64,000 nt of DNA from Nitrospinae bacterium CG11_big_fil_rev_8_21_14_0_20_45_15 (lineage in GTDB: Bacteria; Nitrospinota; Nitrospinia; Nitrospinales; VA-1), in NCBI GenBank assembly GCA_002787235.1, contig PCWG01000032.1:1-64000 (forward strand). Direction: 5' to 3'. A program made the translations under genes and the position numbers. Below are positions 4,162 to 30,125 of this stretch, piece by piece; positions within the stretch are counted from its first letter, which is position 1; every line of letters begins with the position of its first letter. The notes under the pieces were generated by a model. The model was given only the letters and a program-made list of their open reading frames with translations. It did no database searches and had not been told where the DNA came from.

Positions 4162-5550
4162 CTATTTCGGGAATGGGGACCACGAAGGTGCCGAATATTG
4201 TGCCTCATCCGAGTTGTCAGAAGGTGAAACACGTCTTGCAGTGGTTTCCCCTAGCCTCTGAATATAAATTGCAGATTTATGTCTGTCGCTCCGTGTGAAT
4301 GCAATGAAACGACCGTCTGGAGACCAGGTGGGGTCCTGATTTTCATAAGGTCCGGTAGTAAACTCTTCCAGTTTATTCTCTGCCAGATCGTAAATTTTAA
4401 TTTGCAATCCACTATCGGTGCGGGAAGTGAATGCGATGCGATCTCCATCGGGAGACCATGCAGGGTCATCGTTATAATTGGAATCGGACTCTATTTTTCT
4501 CAACCCGCCTTTTTCTCCCTTATTCGCATCCATGATGTATATCTGCGGTCGGGCAACTCCTGCGCGATCGGATGTAAAAACAATCTGCTTGCCATCAGGT
4601 GACCAGGAAGGGGAGGTGTCGATATTAAAATGCCAGGTCAATCGTTTGAGCTTGAAGTCATCATTCAAAACATAAATTTCTGAATTTTGGTCCTTGCTCA
4701 GAGTCAGCGCAATTTCTTTCCCATTGGGAGCCCAAACGCCTGTCGCGTTCAACCCCGGCAAACGTTGAAGATTTTTTTTGACTTTCACATCGGCACTATT
4801 GATCATCACAAGATTGGGATTTTGTAATTTGGGATTCTCGACGGATTGTTGAAACGTTGTATAAGAAATCCACTTCCCATCCGGCGACCAGTCGGGGCTG
4901 AGGTTGATGGTGTCATCCCAGGTCAATTGTTCCGCACGGTTGCCATCGAAATCCACGGCGTATAATTCTTTCACCATGTGATTTTTATTAGGCGAAAAGC
5001 GGTCCGCTTTGAGCCACTTCTTCAGGAAAACAATACGCGAATCCGCCATACCTCTTTTACCCGTCAATTGTAAAACCATCTCATCAGCAAAACGATGAAT
5101 GATCCTGCGCGAATAACTGGCATCGGATTTGTACTGTTTGCCAAGCAAAAAACTTTCGTGATCGATATCAAACAAACGAAACACATAACTCACAATATTT
5201 GTGTCCACATCCAGATCCATCTGAGTCTTGACCAGCCAGCGAATCCCTTTCTGTCGCCAGGCGGGATAATCTACTTCCGTCAATCCTTCTGCACTAGCCA
5301 GCGTATCCACATCCTGTTGCAGTGAAAACAGTCCTGAAAAATTCAAATCATTTTCAAAAACGATCTTTTCTTTATCTGCCAGGCTGGCGGATTGCGGAGT
5401 CTCTGTTACAAGTCGAAAATCCGGGATGGCTACAGACATCTTGCTTCTGACAATACGTTGCATATCTATCTGCACATCTGCCTGGGACCAGGCAACTGTG
5501 GGGACCAAAATCCAGCAAATGAATAATCCTGAGAACCAATGTTTCATCAC
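4162..5550 (-). CDS. tolB: Tol-Pal system protein TolB
   Basis: 462 residues. A signal peptide (cleavage near VAWSQA) leads to the N-terminal TolB domain, which binds TolA. It is followed by a beta-propeller with at least five WSPDG-type blades (such as WSPDGKWISY, WSPDGKQIVF and WSPDGDRIAF). TolB is the periplasmic partner that shuttles between Pal and TolA during outer-membrane constriction. Length and architecture match the family. The gene starts four bases after the tolA stop, so the two are translated from one operon. Confidence 0.97.
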   Translation of the reverse strand: MMKHWFSGLFICWILVPTVAWSQADVQIDMQRIVRSKMSVAIPDFRLVTETPQSASLADKEKIVFENDLNFSGLFSLQQDVDTLASAEGLTEVDYPAWRQKGIRWLVKTQMDLDVDTNIVSYVFRLFDIDHESFLLGKQYKSDASYSRRIIHRFADEMVLQLTGKRGMADSRIVFLKKWLKADRFSPNKNHMVKELYAVDFDGNRAEQLTWDDTINLSPDWSPDGKWISYTTFQQSVENPKLQNPNLVMINSADVKVKKNLQRLPGLNATGVWAPNGKEIALTLSKDQNSEIYVLNDDFKLKRLTWHFNIDTSPSWSPDGKQIVFTSDRAGVARPQIYIMDANKGEKGGLRKIESDSNYNDDPAWSPDGDRIAFTSRTDSGLQIKIYDLAENKLEEFTTGPYENQDPTWSPDGRFIAFTRSDRHKSAIYIQRLGETTARRVSPSDNSDEAQYSAPSWSPFPK

Positions 5551-8716: not shown

Positions 8717-10189
8717 CTATTTTCCAAGTTGCTCTAAAAGTGCCTCGCGCATGGCAAACAACGGTGCAGACAGTCCCGTCCACAACTCAAACTGAGCTCC
8801 CGCCTGATTGAGGAACAACTCAATGCCGGGAATCACCGTACACCCCGCCTCGCGTGCTTCTTTCAAAAGCCTCGTTTCCAACGGATTGTAAACGGAATCG
8901 AAAACAACCATGCCCGCCTTCAAAAATGATTGCGGGATCGGTGTCGCATCCACATTCGGGTTCATCCCCACCGGCGAACAGTTGATCAAAATATCGCAAC
9001 TCTCCTTAACCGCCTTGCTGACCGGGATAGAACGACCGCCCAACTCCTTCGCCAGCAAATCCGCACGCTCGCGATTGGTGTTGTAGCTCACCGTCACCTG
9101 CGCGCCCAAGGCCACCACCTCATGCCCGATCGCCTTCGCCGTACCGCCCGCGCCAATGATAAGAATTTTCTTGCCCGGCAACGACGTTTTTTCCGCCAAA
9201 GCCTTCACCGCGCCGATGCCATCCGTATTCGCACCGAACCAGCCGTCCTTCGCCTTCGCCATAGTATTGACCGCGCCGATCTTCTTTGCCGCGTCCTCCA
9301 CTGTCCCGGCGAGACGCGCCATATCTTCCTTGAACGGCATGGTGATGCTGAGTCCCTCGATCTCCGATTCAAAGGCCTTGAAAAATTTCTCCGCATTGTC
9401 CGCATAAAAAGGCAGATAGATGCCCGGCCAATCCATCTCCGCAAACGCACGATTATGAATCCACGGACCCATGCTCTTGGAAACAGGGTTGCCCAGAACG
9501 CCATACCATTTCGTCTCCGAAGAATGGCGATCCAAACGGTACACCTCCTGCAAACGACGCGCCGTGATCTGACCCGGAGCACTCTCCTTGCCTCTCTCCA
9601 GCGAACCGAAGGTGAGGTATCCACCCAGCAGAGGCGACAGAATGCGGCTGATCTCGCCTTTCTCACCCATGCAAAGCCCGATCATCTTGCGACCCTCTTT
9701 TTTAGCACGCCGAAGCAATTTGAAAATTTGCAGATTGTCGTTGATGTCCTGCGCGTAAGTGACGATCTTGATGATGTTGTCGCCCGGCAACTCGCACATG
9801 ATCTCGTAAAAAGCCTCCACCCGATCCGGTGTCTTGCTGAAATCGTGATACGACAAAATCAATTTCGACTTGCCACGATCTCCTTCCAAAATAGGCTGAA
9901 GAAATTCCCGAGGTGTCGAAACCTCAATGTCCACATAATCCGCACCCGCCGCAATCGCCTGATGCAATACCGCCACACGGCTCGCTTCATCGCCGGAAAA
10001 CTGACCACCCTCCAGCTTCGTCCGGTTCGTCACAATGCAGGGCGCATCGGCAGAAGCCAACAGCTTAGCCAGGTCGGCACCTTCAATGAGGTCCATACGC
10101 AATTCAAAAAGATCCGCCAGGGGAAGGGCACTTTCAAGATCGGCCAAAGCCTGCTCCATGCTCAACCCGGTAATAGGAACGCAAATCAT
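8717..10189 (-). CDS. aroDE: Bifunctional 3-dehydroquinate dehydratase / shikimate dehydrogenase
   Basis: 490 residues, a fusion of two shikimate-pathway enzymes. Residues 1-215 are a type I dehydroquinase: Glu29/Arg31 (FELRMD), His115 (SYHDF) and Schiff-base Lys141 (KIVTYA). Residues about 228-490 are shikimate dehydrogenase: substrate Ser pair in NPVSKSM, catalytic Lys287 (MPFKEDM), Asn321/Asp323 (NTDG) and the NADP loop IIGAGGTAKA. Together they convert 3-dehydroquinate to shikimate for aromatic amino acid synthesis. All key residues are present, so both halves should be active. Similar fusions are known in plants and some bacteria. No aro neighbours are seen. Confidence 0.95.
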   Translation of the reverse strand: MICVPITGLSMEQALADLESALPLADLFELRMDLIEGADLAKLLASADAPCIVTNRTKLEGGQFSGDEASRVAVLHQAIAAGADYVDIEVSTPREFLQPILEGDRGKSKLILSYHDFSKTPDRVEAFYEIMCELPGDNIIKIVTYAQDINDNLQIFKLLRRAKKEGRKMIGLCMGEKGEISRILSPLLGGYLTFGSLERGKESAPGQITARRLQEVYRLDRHSSETKWYGVLGNPVSKSMGPWIHNRAFAEMDWPGIYLPFYADNAEKFFKAFESEIEGLSITMPFKEDMARLAGTVEDAAKKIGAVNTMAKAKDGWFGANTDGIGAVKALAEKTSLPGKKILIIGAGGTAKAIGHEVVALGAQVTVSYNTNRERADLLAKELGGRSIPVSKAVKESCDILINCSPVGMNPNVDATPIPQSFLKAGMVVFDSVYNPLETRLLKEAREAGCTVIPGIELFLNQAGAQFELWTGLSAPLFAMREALLEQLGK

Positions 10190-23280: not shown

Positions 23281-24450
23281 ATGCCTTCCGACGCACGCAT
23301 AAATATTTTAAAAAATTTAAAGAGAATCGTGATCAAAATTGGCAGTAGCGTGATCTCCCATCACGAGCCCGGCAAAGGACTCACCCAGGGCCTGAACCCT
23401 GATATGGTGCTCCATTACGCAAAAAAGATCAAAATGATCGTCGGCAAAAACTGTCAACCCGTGATCGTGTCCTCAGGAGCCATCATGGCCGGAAGAGCCC
23501 GTTTGGGACTCGACCGCGACCGGCTTTCCATACCCGAAAAACAGGCCTGCGCCTCCATCGGTCAGAGTTTTTTGATGTACACCTACGAAAAGAAACTCGA
23601 AAAACAAGGCCTCAAAGCCGCACAGATCTTATTGAGCAACGACGATCTTGGCAATCGCAAACGCTACCTCAACGCCAAGCACACCATCGAAACATTGATC
23701 GGCTACGGAGCCGTTCCCATCATCAATGAAAACGATACCGTGACCGTGGACGAGATTAAAATCGGCGACAACGACACCCTGTCCGCCACCGTCGCCAGTC
23801 TGGTAGACGCGCAAGCCCTCATCATCCTGTCCGATGTAGACGGCCTCTTCACCCGCGATCCCAGTCAACCGACACCAAAAGGTGAAGCACCCGCCGAACT
23901 CATCTCGCAGGTCGACCGCATCACCCCCGAAATCGAAAAACTGGCAGGCAAGACCACCAATCGACTCGCAGTGGGGGGAATGTACACCAAAGTCCTTTCC
24001 GCCAAAAAGACCATGAACTCCGGCATCCCCTGCTTGCTGATGAACGGACTCGATAAAAAAGCCCTTGATAAATTTTTTGCCGGGGAAGAAGTCGGGACCC
24101 TGTTCTGGTCCGACAAGAAAAAATTTGGCAGTCGCAAACACTGGATCGCACACACCCTGAAACCGCAAGGAAGCCTGTTTCTCGATGCCGGAGCCTGCAA
24201 AGCCATCGCTCAGGGAGGCAAGAGCCTGCTACCTGCCGGGATCAAAAGTATCGAAGGAAAATTTGAATTTGGAAATTGTGTGAGCCTGATCGACGAAGAA
24301 CAAAAAGAAATAGGACGCGGCCTCGTCAACTACAACTCACGCGACCTGGACGAAATCAAAGGCATGAAGACATCTGCCGTGCGCACGCAGTTTCGCAATA
24401 ACTTTTATGAAGAAGTCATCCACCGGGATGACCTCGCACTGATGGAATGA
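23281..24450 (+). CDS. proB: Glutamate 5-kinase
   Basis: 389 residues: an amino-acid kinase domain (VIKIGSSVIS at the N-terminus, VSSGAIMAGRARLGL, INENDTVTVDEIKIGDNDTL, LSDVDGLF) and a C-terminal PUA domain (about 295-370). It phosphorylates glutamate as the first step of proline synthesis and is usually feedback-inhibited by proline. The stop overlaps the start of the YkgJ-type gene by four bases (ATGA), so the two are translationally coupled. Confidence 0.96.
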   Translation: MPSDARINILKNLKRIVIKIGSSVISHHEPGKGLTQGLNPDMVLHYAKKIKMIVGKNCQPVIVSSGAIMAGRARLGLDRDRLSIPEKQACASIGQSFLMYTYEKKLEKQGLKAAQILLSNDDLGNRKRYLNAKHTIETLIGYGAVPIINENDTVTVDEIKIGDNDTLSATVASLVDAQALIILSDVDGLFTRDPSQPTPKGEAPAELISQVDRITPEIEKLAGKTTNRLAVGGMYTKVLSAKKTMNSGIPCLLMNGLDKKALDKFFAGEEVGTLFWSDKKKFGSRKHWIAHTLKPQGSLFLDAGACKAIAQGGKSLLPAGIKSIEGKFEFGNCVSLIDEEQKEIGRGLVNYNSRDLDEIKGMKTSAVRTQFRNNFYEEVIHRDDLALME

Positions 24451-24866
24451 TGTTTCAAAAATGGTGGAAAAAAGAAGCACTGAAATTTGAATGCCAGCCC
24501 GACTGCTTCAAATGCTGTTGCAAACCCGGCGTTGTTTATTTTGATAAAGACGACATCAAACGCGCCGCCGAGTTCCTCGACCTCAGCGAACAGAAATTCA
24601 AACAGACCTTTTTAAAAAAGGAAGGCCATTACTGGATGCTGGAAGTTGAAGAGAATTCGGCCTGCCTGTTCCTGACCCCGGACGGATGCAACATCCACCC
24701 CGCCAAACCCAAACAATGCAGGACCTATCCCTTCTGGCCCGAAGTCATGGAAACGAAAAACAACTGGGAACTCACCAGTGCCTTCTGCCCCGGAATGAAC
24801 AAAGGCCCCGTCATCCCCACCGAGACCATCCGCCATTTGCTCAAAAACCACACCGACTGGTGGTAG
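24447..24866 (+). CDS. YkgJ family cysteine-cluster protein
   Basis: 139 residues with the zinc/iron-chelating CxCxx family pattern: an N-terminal C-x3-C-x2-CCC cluster (CQPDCFKCCC), then CLFL-TPDGCNIHPAKPKQCRTYPF and a final Cys in FCPGM. This family is thought to bind a metal or Fe-S cluster; the exact role is unknown. It overlaps proB by four bases. Its last 130 bases are duplicated 3.9 kb downstream (28655-28784) at 127 of 130 identity, bracketing the ATPase genes. Confidence 0.88.
   Translation: MMFQKWWKKEALKFECQPDCFKCCCKPGVVYFDKDDIKRAAEFLDLSEQKFKQTFLKKEGHYWMLEVEENSACLFLTPDGCNIHPAKPKQCRTYPFWPEVMETKNNWELTSAFCPGMNKGPVIPTETIRHLLKNHTDWW
24736..24865 (+). repeat. Left copy of 130-bp direct repeat bracketing the ATPase island
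   Basis: This is the 3' end of the YkgJ-type gene. The second copy at 28655-28784 differs at only three positions, two of them silent and one changing Glu to Asp. The distance between copies is 3,919 bases. The intact gene is on the left, and the right copy is a fragment without the 5' part. Confidence 0.9.
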
Positions 24867-24992
24867 AAAATTTCAATTTGAAAGACTGGAATAAAGAAGG
24901 AAGAAGAGCATAAACCTGCGCAAAATATCCTTGTTATCAAGTCTTAAAATCTACCCAAATAGACCAAAATCTAATAAAGATTCCCCCAGCAC

Positions 24993-25069
24993 TTGACATA
25001 TATTCATTTTTAACGTACGTTGTTTATAACGTGAGTTAAAAATAACGTACGTTTTAATAAATGTGCGTC
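24993..25069 (+). promoter_or_regulatory. Promoter with a four-unit iteron operator (16-bp period)
   Basis: A perfect -35 box TTGACA (24993-24998) is followed at 17 bases by a weak -10 (TACGTT). Overlapping it are four 10-bp sites spaced exactly 16 bases apart. AACGTACGTT at 25012 and 25044 is perfect and self-complementary. AACGTGAGTT at 25028 matches 8 of 10, and AATGTGCGTC at 25060 matches 7 of 10. Binding by a dimeric regulator would cover the -10 and the transcript start, so repression is the simplest reading. No regulator gene is adjacent, unless the ATPases' own winged-helix domains bind here. Confidence 0.6.
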
Positions 25070-25098
25070 GTTAGGAATAATAGTTTTCGAGGTCAAGC

Positions 25099-26226
25099 AT
25101 GCCTAAAACTCCTAGTTTTAGAATCGCCGGAGGTTCTCCTCCCAGAAACCCCATAGAGGAAGTTGTCGGGCGAGACAAATTTGTTACCCAAATCATTGCA
25201 TGTCTAGAGCATTCCAGCGTTCAAATATTGGCTCCGCGTCGATTGGGAAAAACCTGGACACTGCATTTACTCAATGCCAAGAAACCCGAAATGGTCAAGG
25301 CCAGTTACCTCGATCTCGAAAAATGTTATAGCGCACCAGATTTTCTTTTTGAAATTCTTAATACTTTAAATCTCAAGAAAAAGAAACTATGGGCAAAAAC
25401 TGAAGCATTGGCACAAAAAATTGTCGTCAGCGGAGTTCAGCTCAAGGGCAACGAGCTTGCTTGGGCAGGTATCCTGACCGAAGCTTTCAAAGAGGCAAAT
25501 GATTTTGAAAATATCACTTGGTTATTACTAGATGAGTTTCCCATCTTTTTGAATAACTTGATTACAAAAGATCAACCGGAAATGGCCACACAGATTTTAG
25601 ATACCTTGCGTTCTTCAAGACAAGTTTATCCAAAGATTAAATTTGTTCTAACGGGTTCGATTGGTCTGCATTGGATCATCGACGAATTGGAAAAAACGGG
25701 CTGGCGCAATCCACCGAATGATCTGGAAAAAATGTTTCTGACAACCCTTGAGCCGGAAGATGGTCTTTATTTGGCAAAAGGCCTATTGAACGGAAAAGGT
25801 TTAAACATAAATCAAGCTGAAGATTTAGCAAGAGTAGCTGAGTACAATCCGTTTTATATTCAAAAACTCATATCCTGTTTTGACCTCCAGCAAAACAACG
25901 AACCTATGGAAGACTTTTGCGACCGCATCGCTCAAGACGCCAAACGCGATCCCTTTGAGCTTTTTGATCTAGACAATCGCATGGGAAGGTATTTTGGTCG
26001 CGAGGACAATCTCGCCAAACGTATTCTTGATTTATTGGCTGAAGGGAATGCGCTCAAACCAAAGGAATTTGTTCAACGACTTGAACGAAAACCTGAAGCT
26101 GTTAAGACAATTCTGGATCGTCTGGAAAAAGACGGTTACATAGAAAATTCGGACGGGAAATACCTGTTTGTATCGCAAATACTTCAACGTTGGTGGTCAA
26201 AACGAAGGGGGAATCTTTATGATTGA
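25099..26226 (+). CDS. Archaeal-type/STAND-like ATPase with winged-helix C-terminus (island gene 1)
   Basis: 375 residues. Near the N-terminus is VVGRDKFVTQII, then Walker A in APRRLGKTWTL, Walker B WLLLDEFPIFL (about 155-165) and a sensor-like strand FVLTGSIGLHWII. The pattern matches the ATPase_2 (archaeal ATPase) branch of STAND/AAA proteins. The last ~85 residues look like a winged helix (LKPKEFVQRL, then VKTILDRLEKDGYIENSDGKY). GAGG lies eight bases upstream of the ATG. The stop overlaps the next ATPase by eight bases. Proteins of this build occur in defence, toxin-linked and DNA-segregation roles; which one applies here is unknown. Confidence 0.85.
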   Translation: MPKTPSFRIAGGSPPRNPIEEVVGRDKFVTQIIACLEHSSVQILAPRRLGKTWTLHLLNAKKPEMVKASYLDLEKCYSAPDFLFEILNTLNLKKKKLWAKTEALAQKIVVSGVQLKGNELAWAGILTEAFKEANDFENITWLLLDEFPIFLNNLITKDQPEMATQILDTLRSSRQVYPKIKFVLTGSIGLHWIIDELEKTGWRNPPNDLEKMFLTTLEPEDGLYLAKGLLNGKGLNINQAEDLARVAEYNPFYIQKLISCFDLQQNNEPMEDFCDRIAQDAKRDPFELFDLDNRMGRYFGREDNLAKRILDLLAEGNALKPKEFVQRLERKPEAVKTILDRLEKDGYIENSDGKYLFVSQILQRWWSKRRGNLYD

Positions 26227-28546
26227 TTTAGCAGGCAAAATTTCTGCCTTCAATCCGGGAAATATGTCCGATGAAAATTTAAAAAAACTCTGGGTGAGAC
26301 GACGCAAGGAAACTGACCTCATCGTAGAAAATATCCGGCACGCCGCAATCAACCAAACCGCTCCTCCACAGCAATTGGTGATTGCCCCTCGCGGTTATGG
26401 GAAAACTCACCTGATGAGTCATGTGTACTTGGCTCTGACGGAAGACAAGTCTTTGAAAGATTGCCTCACCATAGCTCGCCTAAAAGAGGAAGAGCATGTA
26501 CACAGTTATCTGGATTTTTTAAGACGAATCCTGAATGCTATCGATGATTTTCGGACCAAACAAAAGCTCCCAAAAATCGAAGGGCTCAAACAAACGGTCA
26601 TTGCCATTCATGAAAATCCTGATGACTCGATGGATTCCACAGCAGAAGACGTTATCAACTCCGCTGTTGGTGAAGGCATGCTTGTGATACTCATGGAAAA
26701 TTTGGGGGATATTTTTGACGGACTTGAGGAAAAAGGGCAAAGCAAGTTGAGAGCCTTTCTTCAAACATCACGAAAAATTTCATTGTTGTGCAGTGCCCAG
26801 AAGTTGTTTGAACCCATAGAATCGAGAAACTTTCCTTTTTACGGATTTTTTGAAAGAAATTATCTGGAACCTTTTGATGATTCGGAAACACTCGAACTGT
26901 TGAAAATTTTAGCGGAAATCAATAATGATTTGGATTTGGAAAACTTTCTCGATTCTCCCTTGGGAAGATCCCGTACAGCCGTTGTCTGCCAATTGACCAG
27001 CGGCAATCCTCGTTTGATTTTATTGCTCGCTCAATTTCTGAATCGTGAAAAAATGGAAGAATTGACAGGGGCTTTCATGCAACTGGTAGAAAACTGTCTC
27101 ACCCCCTATTACCAAGAGCAAATGGTACGACTGTCGCCTCTGCAAAAAAGAATCATAGAAGTTCTTTGCGAAAAAGGGGACGGCAAACCTCAAACGGTTA
27201 AGGAAATTTCAAAAAATACTCTCACCACAACGCAATCAATCAGCAGTCAATTGAAAAAAATGCAGGAATTGGGAATCCTCAATTCAAATAAATACGGCCG
27301 CTTCACAAAATACGAAATGGCAGAACCATTATGGCGTGTGTCCATAGAAGCTAAAAATAATGTCGAGGGAGTCCTACCCATCGTAGTGGAATTCATTAAA
27401 ATCTGGAAATCCCCTCAAGAATTATGGAACGACCTTCTCGTAGAAGGTCCCGAGTCTGGTCGGGTTTATAGCCACTTGTTCCATGCTTTCAAAAGAAATT
27501 TCGACGAATTGCCTCCTCCCATTCAAGACGAATCGGTCAAGGAAAAAATACGCGAACTCTGCGATTGCCTGCCCGACAATATAGCGCAGGCCGAAAAAAT
27601 CACCTGCGCCCTCAAAGCAGTTGCCTCTATTAAAATCGGAAATCATTCTGACAAATACGGAATTTCTCATTTAAATACTTTTTTACGTTACCTTCAAGGA
27701 AGAGATACTTTCGGCAAATTGTTAGATAAAACAGAGCACTCGAGAACAGAAATAACAATCCTCGGTTTAATAATGTTCACATACACTTGGGCACATATAG
27801 GCATGTGGAATGAAGGGAAAAGCTGGGATCAAGACAATAAAGCTACTCTCGAGCTTATAAAGTTCAACATCTTAAAATTTGTACTTAGGGAAACAAATCT
27901 AAACTTATTGAAATCCATTAAAGCTGAAAGGTTTCAATTCTTAATCTATCACCAGTTGTGCCTAGAAGGTGATGAACTAAAAGCCTTTTCTTGGCTAAAA
28001 AGTACCATCAAAGAAATATACAGCGACAGCAACTTAAGAAGTATGTATGAAATCAGCCTTAAATGTGGATTCTCTACTCAAGAAAATTTACTATTCTCAA
28101 AAATTGCAGATCAGCCGACAGAATTTTTTAATGAAATTGAGTGGGTAGCTCATATTTTTTTCATAATAGCGACTAATAAAAAAGAACGTTTACCATCTTT
28201 TTTAGACTTGCTCATGAAAAATTTAAACACATACAATCAAAAAGCTCTTTTCTTGACAATCGGGCTATTTTTCCTTCAGCACGGAGATGAGGCATTGAAA
28301 ATTTGGAAGAATTCCAAAAATGAAATTTTTGACGCAATCTCAAATTGGGAGAATTTTGATTTTATTAAACTTTTGATGTCACAACTAGAGGACTACGCTA
28401 ACGGCGACGACTCTGCCTTGAACGATTTTCCAATTGAACTGAGAAGTGGTTTTGAAGAAACTAAAGAAAAATGTTCTAAAAAACCTGTCCCTATGGGATT
28501 CAGTTTTATTACGCCATTTGAAATTCCCAAAAAGGACAATTCTTAA
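26219..28546 (+). CDS. Large AAA/STAND ATPase with MarR-like helix-turn-helix and helical C-terminus (island gene 2)
   Basis: 775 residues from the ATG at 26219, chosen because AAGGGGGAA lies seven bases upstream; an upstream frame extension to 26168 lacks a ribosome site. Walker A is IAPRGYGKTHLM. The Walker B strand is MLVILMENLGDIF, with Glu-Asn in place of the usual Asp-Glu. A sensor-like strand SLLCSAQKLF follows. Residues about 285-360 form a winged helix (LSPLQKRIIEVL, then ISSQLKKMQELGILNSN). The last ~400 residues are alpha-helical with no recognised domain, and their DNA is clearly more AT-rich than the flanks. This could be a sensor or effector region. It is translationally coupled to gene 1. 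Confidence 0.82.
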   Translation: MIDLAGKISAFNPGNMSDENLKKLWVRRRKETDLIVENIRHAAINQTAPPQQLVIAPRGYGKTHLMSHVYLALTEDKSLKDCLTIARLKEEEHVHSYLDFLRRILNAIDDFRTKQKLPKIEGLKQTVIAIHENPDDSMDSTAEDVINSAVGEGMLVILMENLGDIFDGLEEKGQSKLRAFLQTSRKISLLCSAQKLFEPIESRNFPFYGFFERNYLEPFDDSETLELLKILAEINNDLDLENFLDSPLGRSRTAVVCQLTSGNPRLILLLAQFLNREKMEELTGAFMQLVENCLTPYYQEQMVRLSPLQKRIIEVLCEKGDGKPQTVKEISKNTLTTTQSISSQLKKMQELGILNSNKYGRFTKYEMAEPLWRVSIEAKNNVEGVLPIVVEFIKIWKSPQELWNDLLVEGPESGRVYSHLFHAFKRNFDELPPPIQDESVKEKIRELCDCLPDNIAQAEKITCALKAVASIKIGNHSDKYGISHLNTFLRYLQGRDTFGKLLDKTEHSRTEITILGLIMFTYTWAHIGMWNEGKSWDQDNKATLELIKFNILKFVLRETNLNLLKSIKAERFQFLIYHQLCLEGDELKAFSWLKSTIKEIYSDSNLRSMYEISLKCGFSTQENLLFSKIADQPTEFFNEIEWVAHIFFIIATNKKERLPSFLDLLMKNLNTYNQKALFLTIGLFFLQHGDEALKIWKNSKNEIFDAISNWENFDFIKLLMSQLEDYANGDDSALNDFPIELRSGFEETKEKCSKKPVPMGFSFITPFEIPKKDNS

Positions 28547-28654
28547 ATCCGTAGGATGACGTGTTTAGATACAACGAGGACATTTTGCATCAGAATAAAG
28601 ATTATCTCTAGCTCACGCTAAAAGGTCATCCATTTCTGGCAAACCAATCCGTAA

Positions 28655-28785
28655 GGCCCGAAGTCATGGAAACGAAAAACAACTGGGAACTCACCAGTGC
28701 CTTCTGCCCCGGAATGAACAAAGGCCCCGTCATCCCCACCGACACCATTCGCCACTTGCTCAAAAACCACACCGACTGGTGGTAA
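28655..28785 (+). pseudogene. 3' fragment of the YkgJ-type gene (right direct repeat)
   Basis: Reads in frame from EVMETKNNWELTSAFCPG to LLKNHTDWW and a TAA stop, as in the intact gene at 24447-24866, but lacks the start and the N-terminal cysteine cluster. The DNA match begins abruptly at GGCCCG and ends at the stop codon. It marks the right edge of the duplicated segment. Confidence 0.9.
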
Positions 28786-28786
28786 G

Positions 28787-28816
28787 TTTTTTAAGAAAAT
28801 ACATTGTCTTAAAAAA
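28787..28816. terminator. Bidirectional terminator-like inverted repeat
   Basis: TTTTTTAAGA (28787-28796) pairs perfectly with 28807-28816 around a ten-base loop. It lies directly after the gene fragment and 43 nt from the end of the convergent membrane-protein gene. The stem is AT-rich, so efficiency is uncertain. Confidence 0.45.
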
Positions 28817-28859
28817 ATTGATTACTATTCCTACCTTGAAAAAATGAGAAAAAATCCAA

Positions 28860-29204
28860 TTAAATTAAGGTCAAAATAGTTTTGTGCAAAAAGTAACCCA
28901 TTACAAGCATTCCCAATCCAATCGCATAGGCTTGCCAGAATGAAATATGTAACTTTTCATAAAATAAAAACGGAATAAAAAATAACAAAGTAACGGGAAC
29001 GGCTACAAAAATACTTTTCGCAAAAACTATCGTTGCTTGAGGGTTTTTATGCTCGCTGTACGAAAATGCAAGTGCAATCAAACTCGCTATAGGCAAGGCT
29101 AATAAGAAACCAGCGAGCTCAGGTCTTTTACCAGAGAGCCAAGAGCAAAAACTGATTATCATTGCCGCCGCAATTACTTTAACAATAAATAAGGTCATGA
29201 CCAT
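28860..29204 (-). CDS. Small four-helix membrane protein (DUF3147/GlpM-like)
   Basis: 114 residues with four hydrophobic helices. After helix 1 comes SGKRPELAGFLLALPIASLIAL, which resembles the DUF3147/GlpM pattern with its conserved KRP/Ala-Gly-Leu segment. Inner-membrane location is certain from hydrophobicity; function is unknown. It is convergent with the ATPase island, and no operon partner is obvious. Confidence 0.7.
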   Translation of the reverse strand: MVMTLFIVKVIAAAMIISFCSWLSGKRPELAGFLLALPIASLIALAFSYSEHKNPQATIVFAKSIFVAVPVTLLFFIPFLFYEKLHISFWQAYAIGLGMLVMGYFLHKTILTLI

Positions 29205-29345
29205 TGTTCCAGATTATTTCTAAAAACCAGCCGACTGAAATTCCCGGGCAGGAAGAGGGATTGGGTTGCTGAAAATCAACCCGATATTACGCCTTCTTCA
29301 TACCAAGCGCATCAAAATTACCCAATCAACCCACACCCCTCAGAA

Positions 29346-30125
29346 TCATCCAACATTCCCTTTATTCCTTGCGAACCAGTCGGCCAGGGCCAAGTGGGTG
29401 CATTGGTAGACGGCTTTGCCGATCCATTCGCCCAGGCGCGTGTGCATGCCGCAATAATTTTCGTCGACCTCGCCACTGCTGGCGATGACGATGCAATCAG
29501 TCCCGGTTCCCGGTGACGGTTTGCCGCTCTTCACGCTCACAACTCCCAAATCAAAAAACGCTGTGGCTTTCGCCAGTGCGGAAAGGTGCAGGGCTTCGGC
29601 ACGACCACTCAGATGGGGCAGGGCGTTGCTCGCAACAATGAGGTTTACGGTTCCCAGCGGGCCAAGCCCGCTATGCAAAGAACTACCCGCATCTGCATTC
29701 GACTCGCCATGATTGTCCCGTTGATCGGACGGATCCATCTTCCAGTCCTCCGGGCTATCCGCAAGGTCGCCCGGTGAGCGGGCGTTTTCGATTCCCACGG
29801 TGACCAACGCGTGGACCCACAGCTGTCCATCGCCAATGAAAAATTCGCAGTACTCTTTCACCTCGGCTCCGGTCAGCAGACCCACTGCGTCTTTTGGAAG
29901 TTTGTGTTCTTCGATCAGATCGAAAAACATTTCCGGCATTTTGATTTCCCGCGCGCGGGTGACCTGATGGTTGAAGATGCAGGAGGTCGTCCCATCTCCA
30001 CCATTGAAAGGGGCCCAGCTCAACACCGGCCACTCTGCGGGCAGATCCACGACCAAAGTACTGCCGCAGAGCCTTGTCCTGAGCGGGCTGTCACTTGGAT
30101 TGTTTGAAATTTGCCGATCACTCAT
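29346..30125 (-). CDS. cbiZ: Adenosylcobinamide amidohydrolase CbiZ
   Basis: 259 residues. Family motifs: APFNGGDG near the N-terminus, VTVGIENARSPGD, GTVNLIVASNA, a helix ALAKATAFFDLGV, then GTGTDCIVIASS and a C-terminal GEWIGKAVY. CbiZ removes the aminopropanol arm from cobinamides and so salvages them as cobyric acid. Between NARSPGD and GTVNLI lies an insertion of roughly 30 residues, rich in Asp/Ser/Asn. It ends in SGLGPL, which is encoded by a repeat-type palindrome (29656-29672). It overlaps the aldo/keto reductase gene by eight bases. Confidence 0.88.
   Translation of the reverse strand: MSDRQISNNPSDSPLRTRLCGSTLVVDLPAEWPVLSWAPFNGGDGTTSCIFNHQVTRAREIKMPEMFFDLIEEHKLPKDAVGLLTGAEVKEYCEFFIGDGQLWVHALVTVGIENARSPGDLADSPEDWKMDPSDQRDNHGESNADAGSSLHSGLGPLGTVNLIVASNALPHLSGRAEALHLSALAKATAFFDLGVVSVKSGKPSPGTGTDCIVIASSGEVDENYCGMHTRLGEWIGKAVYQCTHLALADWFARNKGNVG

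What the first reader, a model, noticed from the sequence alone, without database searches (positions are those of the whole stretch)
24736..28785. Two-ATPase island bracketed by a 130-bp direct repeat of the target gene's 3' end
Seen: 24736-24865 and 28655-28784 match at 127 of 130 positions, and both end at the stop codon of the YkgJ-type gene. The copy on the left is complete and the right one is a fragment. The DNA between carries only two overlapping ATPase genes with their own operator array and is more AT-rich toward its right end. Inference: an element entered the 3' end of this gene and restored it, as integrative elements do at tRNA genes, or a duplication occurred by recombination. 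No integrase is present, so mobilisation would be in trans.
Basis: partly seen in the sequence, partly recalled or inferred. Interest (0 to 1): 0.75.

Follow-up and report, generated by a model that had tools for sequence, protein, structure and literature searches.

The report
Mobile ATPase cassette inside gene ends
A small two-gene package of ATPases, possibly a bacterial immune module, appears to have slipped into the tail end of a host gene while supplying a replacement tail so that the gene still reads, and related packages did the same at other genes in other bacteria although no integration enzyme was found in them.

Summary
In detail: the repeat (127/130), the complete gene on the left and the two overlapping ATPase genes are as described. 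Same-genus G002 has one ykgJ-type gene, no fragment and no ATPases.

The pair recurs elsewhere with the same anatomy. In G027 (40-42% identical) it lies behind an unrelated gene whose last 36 bases are repeated (34/36); 16 of 19 relatives' loci show that site empty. Two myxobacterial pairs adjoin a third gene's end (73/78) and a cysK-like gene's end (72/75). Seven of 41 loci reach the repeat threshold against 1 of 478 control placements; I accept 4 and probable.

Of 10 differences between copies within coding sequence or stop codon, 9 are third-position. So the copies look like two functional alleles, as in E. coli icd/e14: the cassette seems to have brought its own gene end. The test was post hoc and small.

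No integrase, transposase or inverted ends were found in the units; what recombines them is unknown. ATPase 1 has a STAND/ORC-like fold with a winged helix; an immune role is inferred, not shown.

The parts
24447..24866 (+). target gene, CxxCxxCC-family (YkgJ-type), 139 aa, complete
   Evidence: PF03692 E 8.9e-10; G002 orthologue 82% identical, single
24736..24865 (+). left repeat copy: the 3' end now in use by the gene; read here as brought by the cassette
   Evidence: 127/130 with 28655-28784; 3 of 3 differences at third codon positions
24866..28654 (.). cassette between the repeat copies, 3789 bases
   Evidence: absent from collinear G002
25011..25068 (.). operator-like array, palindromic AACGTACGTT-type units 16 bases apart
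   Evidence: best lag 16, shuffle p 0.04 here; identical unit in G027
25099..26226 (+). ATPase 1, 375 aa, STAND/ORC-Cdc6-like P-loop ATPase with C-terminal winged helix
   Evidence: PF01047 E 1.7e-5; model pLDDT 72.5; Z 22.4 to 2qen
26219..28546 (+). ATPase 2, 775 aa, ORC4-like ATPase domain, winged helix, long helical C-terminal part
   Evidence: weak Pfam hits; profile of the family finds ORC4 and ArsR chains; own model poor
28655..28784 (+). right repeat copy: displaced 3' end of the target gene, frame and stop (28783-28785 TAA) kept

Best explanation
A compact mobile cassette (operator array plus two overlapping ATPase genes) integrated into the 3' end of the ykgJ-type gene. It brought its own, slightly different allele of the gene's last 130 bases, so the resident gene stayed complete, and the displaced original end remains at the far side. 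The gene-end repeat thus behaves like an att site. Shown: the anatomy, its recurrence at other genes, the empty sites. Inferred: the import of the gene end, and the crossover, made either by a recombinase supplied in trans or by host homologous recombination between the two gene ends. The cargo is most likely a STAND-type immune or stress module that represses itself through the operators (inferred).
For: Empty site in collinear same-genus G002. Same unit behind unrelated genes: G027, DUF5919-domain gene, 34/36; L063, AAT-domain gene, 73/78; L124, PALP-family cysK-like gene, 72/75. In 16 of 19 relatives' loci the G027 target gene is followed by nuoA with no ATPase 2, and sequence from 154 bases beyond the G027 fragment on matches what follows the gene in relatives. 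Control: 1 of 478 placements at score 25 or more, against 7 of 41 real loci. Differences inside coding sequence or stop: 0, 1 and 9 at codon positions 1, 2, 3; p 0.0004 against 1/3, 0.005 against a hand-set 0.45; the four fragments keep frame and a stop; the block ends within or at the stop codon in 3 of 4. Best upstream repeat lag includes 16 in 15 of 31 loci.
Against: No gene for an integrase was found in the units, and four unrelated target genes would need several specificities. The ends of the four units share no sequence. Neither ATPase was found in viral contigs, nor ATPase 2 in phage records, nor the gene-end sequence in either. 33 of 41 loci show no flanking repeat at score 20. In L120, a probable fifth case, one copy is frameshifted, as plain decay would give. 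The allele argument rests on ten differences and was devised after seeing them. In the window the right fragment is not next to the downstream gene seen in G002, so its native status there is inferred; in G027 the first 153 bases after the fragment do not align with relatives.
Confidence: 0.58

Rival explanations
1. Insertion with long, variable target duplication, as reported for restriction-modification genes: the module enters by an unknown route and the target stretch (36 to 130 bases here) is duplicated; the copies were identical at first and drifted apart.
For: No integrase found, variable repeat length, unrelated targets, module of defence-like type. The pattern is described for RM genes in passages of PMC1643837, PMC3031569 and PMC4978471. 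L120 shows a long copy with frameshift. Long variable direct repeats of 8-514 bp also occur with IS1549 and IS1634 (PMC2266710, passage).
Against: A drifting fragment should change at all codon positions; 9 of 10 differences are third-position and the four fragments keep frame and a stop. Arbitrary target boundaries should rarely fall at the stop codon, yet 3 of 4 do.
Confidence: 0.25
2. A decayed integrative element (CIME-like): a former integrase-bearing element inserted in the gene end and lost everything but the ATPase pair; the repeats are its attL and attR and a related integrase could still move it.
For: Repeats at gene 3' ends with the gene kept intact; CIMEs are defined as elements that kept attL and attR but lost integration genes (PMC5704250, passage).
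Against: Four units at four genes would have had to decay to nearly the same two genes with 25-1000 bases around them; no integrase-bearing relative at these sites was seen, though none was searched for by integrase model.
Confidence: 0.1
3. Local accident: an unequal exchange or assembly error duplicated the gene end beside an unrelated gene pair.
For: None beyond the repeat itself; the genome is a draft of 45 contigs.
Against: Recurrence at other genes and empty sites in relatives; the flanks of the two copies differ and lie within one 253,626-base contig.
Confidence: 0.03

Closest known systems
Prophage e14 in icd of E. coli K-12
   Same: Element in the 3' part of a protein gene, gene kept intact by an element-side copy: 165 bp with 12 exchanges and two Glu/Asp changes (PMC11148124, passage); here 130 bp with 3 exchanges, one of them Glu/Asp.
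   Different: e14 is a prophage with an integrase gene; here only two ATPase genes were found and related cassettes sit at several different genes.
Insertion of restriction-modification genes with long target duplication
   Same: Defence-type module without own recombinase, flanked by long direct repeats of variable length (passages).
   Different: Here the copies differ mostly at third codon positions and the repeat ends at the stop codon in 3 of 4; the cargo has no nuclease or methylase. The original paper (Nobusato 2000) was not seen.
CIME (cis-mobilizable element)
   Same: Bordered by att-like repeats at a gene end, no integrase (PMC5704250, passage).
   Different: No trace of other genes of an integrative element; same small unit at several unrelated genes.
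Archaeal STAND/MNS-type ATPases (2qen, 2fna) and ORC/Cdc6
   Same: Fold of ATPase 1 over about 314 residues, winged helix.
   Different: 13-17% identity; paired with a second, longer ATPase. The label MNS is recalled.
BREX ATPases BrxC and BrxD
   Same: ORC/Cdc6-type ATPases; BrxC has a winged helix after the ATPase domain (PMC12839542, passages).
   Different: No other BREX gene in the cassette and no BREX model among PADLOC hits.

Membership tests
Gene-end-restoring integrative element (icd/e14, tRNA-gene type) | target gene 3' end repeated, complete gene on one side, tail on the other | tested here: met
   window and three other loci
Gene-end-restoring integrative element (icd/e14, tRNA-gene type) | element-side copy is a different functional allele | tested here: met
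   9 of 10 coding differences third-position; small numbers, post hoc, L120 not in line
Gene-end-restoring integrative element (icd/e14, tRNA-gene type) | empty site with a single gene in relatives | tested here: met
   G002; 16 of 19 loci for the G027 target; not shown for L063 and L124
Gene-end-restoring integrative element (icd/e14, tRNA-gene type) | own integrase | tested here: not met
   only the ATPase genes by ORF listing and Pfam, plus one gene without Pfam hit in L124
Insertion with long target duplication | flanking direct repeats of variable length from the target, no recombinase | tested here: met
   36, 75, 78 and 130 bases
Insertion with long target duplication | copies identical at insertion, later drift without coding constraint on the tail | tested here: inconclusive
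   9 of 10 third-position differences speak against it; frameshifted L120 copy speaks for it
DDE transposon with long direct repeats (IS1549/IS1634 kind) | terminal inverted repeats and a transposase | tested here: not met
   no inverted repeat clearly above shuffles in the outer 150 bases of four units (window 10 against a shuffle maximum of 9, others below), no transposase gene
STAND/ORC-Cdc6-type AAA+ ATPase (ATPase 1) | P-loop ATPase fold with C-terminal winged helix | tested here: met
   Z 22.4 to 2qen, 314 aligned, rmsd 3.7; MarR-type winged helix
BREX system | BrxC, PglZ and methyltransferase together | tested here: not met
   two genes only; no BREX model among PADLOC hits up to E 1
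Anti-phage defence system | demonstrated protection against phage | not testable with these tools
   context only: a homologous pair lies near qatD on Moraxella plasmid pNP7-2

The most novel reading that the evidence does not exclude
The two ATPases, whose structural neighbours include the transposition ATPases TnsC and MuB as well as ORC/Cdc6, are themselves the mobility machinery: they bind the 16-bp array, assemble on DNA and drive exchange between the cassette-borne gene tail and its resident twin, giving an integrase-free element that uses copied gene tails as addresses.
Probability: 0.07. Interest if true: 0.92.

Novelty: new variant of a known kind. Interest (0 to 1): 0.62.

Why it matters
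If right, a defence-like module in which no integrase was found settles in the ends of ordinary protein genes and spares the host gene by carrying a replacement tail. That would extend gene-end-restoring elements to very small cassettes, give a route for spread of such modules, and provide a sequence signature (third-position differences between the repeat copies, repeat ending at the stop codon) that tells an imported gene end from a plain target duplication, a question also open for the long target duplications around restriction-modification genes.

Tried and rejected
Virus origin: no relative of ATPase 2 or ATPase 1 in viral contigs by the pattern search, none of ATPase 2 in phage records, no match of the right repeat region in phages or of a 23-base piece in viral contigs. 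Transposon with inverted ends: none clearly above shuffles, no shared ends among four units. A RelA/SpoT-like third gene in L124, noted early from the look of the sequence (note), found no Pfam hit and no solved relative and is dropped. Known RNA family at 24300-29500: none. G041 and G043 carry a distant ATPase-1-like gene about 3.4 kb from their ykgJ-type gene; in G041, where I read the genes, it stands alone beside a gene that looks like purA (label recalled), and neither locus has a strong ATPase 2 match, so I do not count them. No flanking repeat was seen for L064, L067, L049, L050 and L051. L107 (59/69, intergenic), L133 (25/25) and L103 (operator-like copies at both ends, 28/32) are not counted as gene-end cases; L120 (ClpB end plus DUF433 gene; 87% identical, frameshifted, 5,675-base contig) is counted only as probable. 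Empty sites for L124 and L063 were sought, but the best homologues outside their own genomes were 41% and 48% identical, so they are not shown. The class search returned 71 genomes and no place that one search had not listed. A script to read ykgJ ends in relatives matched 6 of 29 loci and was not used. The ATPase 2 model (pTM 0.34) was not searched. Whether integrases occur elsewhere in the window or genome was not tested.

Full report
WHAT IS THERE. The 130-base direct repeat is present as described, 127 of 130. The left copy closes a complete CxxCxxCC-family gene, 24447-24866; the right copy is an in-frame tail with its own TAA stop. Between them, 3,789 bases hold an operator-like array and two genes overlapping by 8 bases. 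A DNA search of the own genome found only these two places.

EMPTY SITE. In 59 other genomes (60 with its own) 50 have a ykgJ-type hit, 49 of them a single one. ATPase 2 is matched in 3 of 59 others and ATPase 1 in 4 of 59 at E 0.001; only G027 has strong matches to both. Same-genus G002 is collinear over the 18 kb compared, with small gaps, but has nothing between the gene end and cbiZ except 6 bases. In the window 28785-29345, with a small gene on the minus strand (weak PF11457 hit), also separates the right tail from cbiZ and is missing from G002, so the native status of the right flank is inferred here.

THE SAME UNIT ELSEWHERE. The gene before it, with a DUF5919 hit, has its last 36 bases repeated after ATPase 2, 34/36. 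In 16 of 19 relatives' loci that gene is followed by nuoA and none of the 19 holds ATPase 2; the other three loci showed no nuoA. Sequence from 154 bases beyond the G027 fragment on matches what follows the gene in relatives; the first 153 bases do not align, although the stop TGA and the next few bases resemble G030 by eye. A Myxococcales genome (L063) has the pair behind an AAT-domain gene with 78 bases repeated, 73/78. A search of 377 Myxococcota genomes found ATPase 2 in 29, including the two known before; 33 loci were fetched. L124 has the pair plus one gene without known relatives between two copies of the end of a PALP-family, cysK-like gene, 72/75; there the intact gene is on the right and points towards the cassette, so orientation is not fixed.

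COUNTS AND CONTROL. Forty-one loci were scanned, the window among them. With 1,500-base blocks 8 of 41 reach score 20 and 7 of 41 reach 25; 1 of 478 overlapping placements elsewhere in the same sequences reaches 25, a low-complexity stretch. I accept four (window, G027, L063, L124), call L120 probable (ClpB end and DUF433 gene), and leave out L107, L133 and L103. Thirty-three of 41 show nothing at score 20: old insertions, another route, or lost traces. Ten of 41 lack an upstream ORF by my criterion, so some may not be the same system.

IMPORTED END OR DUPLICATED TARGET. The four accepted repeats hold 13 mismatches, 10 within coding sequence or stop codons, at codon positions 1, 2, 3 in the numbers 0, 1, 9. 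Nine or more of ten has a chance of 0.0004 at 1/3 and 0.005 at 0.45, a value set by hand for one constrained and one free copy. In three pairs the stop codons differ but remain stops (two of these lie just outside the counted block). In three of four the similarity ends 0-2 bases short of the end of the stop codon; in L063 it runs 27 bases further with three differences. Two functional alleles explain this; a fragment decaying after duplication does so less easily. The test was devised after seeing the data, numbers are small, and L120, where one copy is frameshifted, points the other way.

WHAT THE PROTEINS ARE. ATPase 1 was modelled at mean pLDDT 72.5. Its best matches are the archaeal ATPases 2qen (Z 22.4, rmsd 3.7, 314 aligned) and 2fna (Z 22.0), then NLR resistosomes, apoptosome ATPases, ORC/Cdc6, MuB, TnsC and Avs3; a profile also finds 2qen (E 0.0008). 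For ATPase 2 a family profile finds ORC4 and ArsR-type chains; TPR repeats fill the C terminus in L063, L107 and L102 but Pfam shows none in the window protein. PADLOC gives weak winged-helix hits, NCBIfam and PHROGs weak winged-helix or ATPase hits for the window proteins. In 31 of 41 loci an ORF of 200 aa or more ends within 150 bases of the ATPase 2 start. Among those 31, the best repeat lag upstream (lags 10-30) includes 16 in 15; nine of them at shuffle p 0.01 or less, two of which (L103, L104) are orthologous loci; the window itself gives p 0.04.

FUNCTION. A homologous pair on Moraxella plasmid pNP7-2 lies near qatD and a kinase gene, on p4 upstream of a methylase gene, on pSKB0120-2 among hypothetical genes. 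With the fold and the patchy distribution this suggests an immune module; no assay shows it. Operators of repeated palindromes control a known defence island through RptR (PMC12255303, passages).

LITERATURE. The closest architecture in what I saw is e14 in icd (PMC11148124, passages). Insertion with long target duplication is known for RM genes; I saw passages of PMC1643837, PMC3031569 and PMC4978471, not the original (Nobusato 2000), and Furuta 2010 is not held. The searches listed no paper that I recognised as describing this pair; that is a limited negative in an open-licence library.

VERDICT. Real, recurrent, and best read as a mobile cassette that carries its own copy of the target gene's tail. 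The recombining agent is the open point.

Noticed in passing
window 28785-29345: A small gene (28860-29204, minus strand, weak DUF3021 hit) lies between the right tail and cbiZ; absent from G002, matched in 7 of 59 other genomes. Possibly a separate insertion.
   Followed up: partly
L103 (opposite strand of the locus, about 5264-5295 and 9286-9317) and L104: In two orthologous myxobacterial loci operator-like 16-bp repeats stand at both ends of the ATPase pair, as element-end sites might.
   Followed up: partly
L044:6041-6078 and L044:11457-11494: A 38-base inverted repeat (87%) brackets the whole G027 region, target gene included.
   Followed up: no
L045:3827-5047 and G043:C6:5919-7073: Distant ATPase-1-like genes about 3.4 kb from the ykgJ-type gene in two genomes of the same order, without a clear ATPase 2.
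   Followed up: partly
L067 and L190 (Moraxella osloensis plasmids p4 and pNP7-2): A homologous pair with the same annotated genes on its right but different genes on its left; in pNP7-2 qatD lies upstream.
   Followed up: partly
L066:6956-9651 (Mycobacterium avium plasmid pP4-4a): An ATPase-2-like gene directly followed by a serine/threonine kinase gene, with no ATPase 1 annotated beside it.
   Followed up: no
L120:1-1169: A stretch of some 300-400 bases with the ClpB end and a DUF433 gene occurs on both sides of an ATPase pair, one copy frameshifted.
   Followed up: partly
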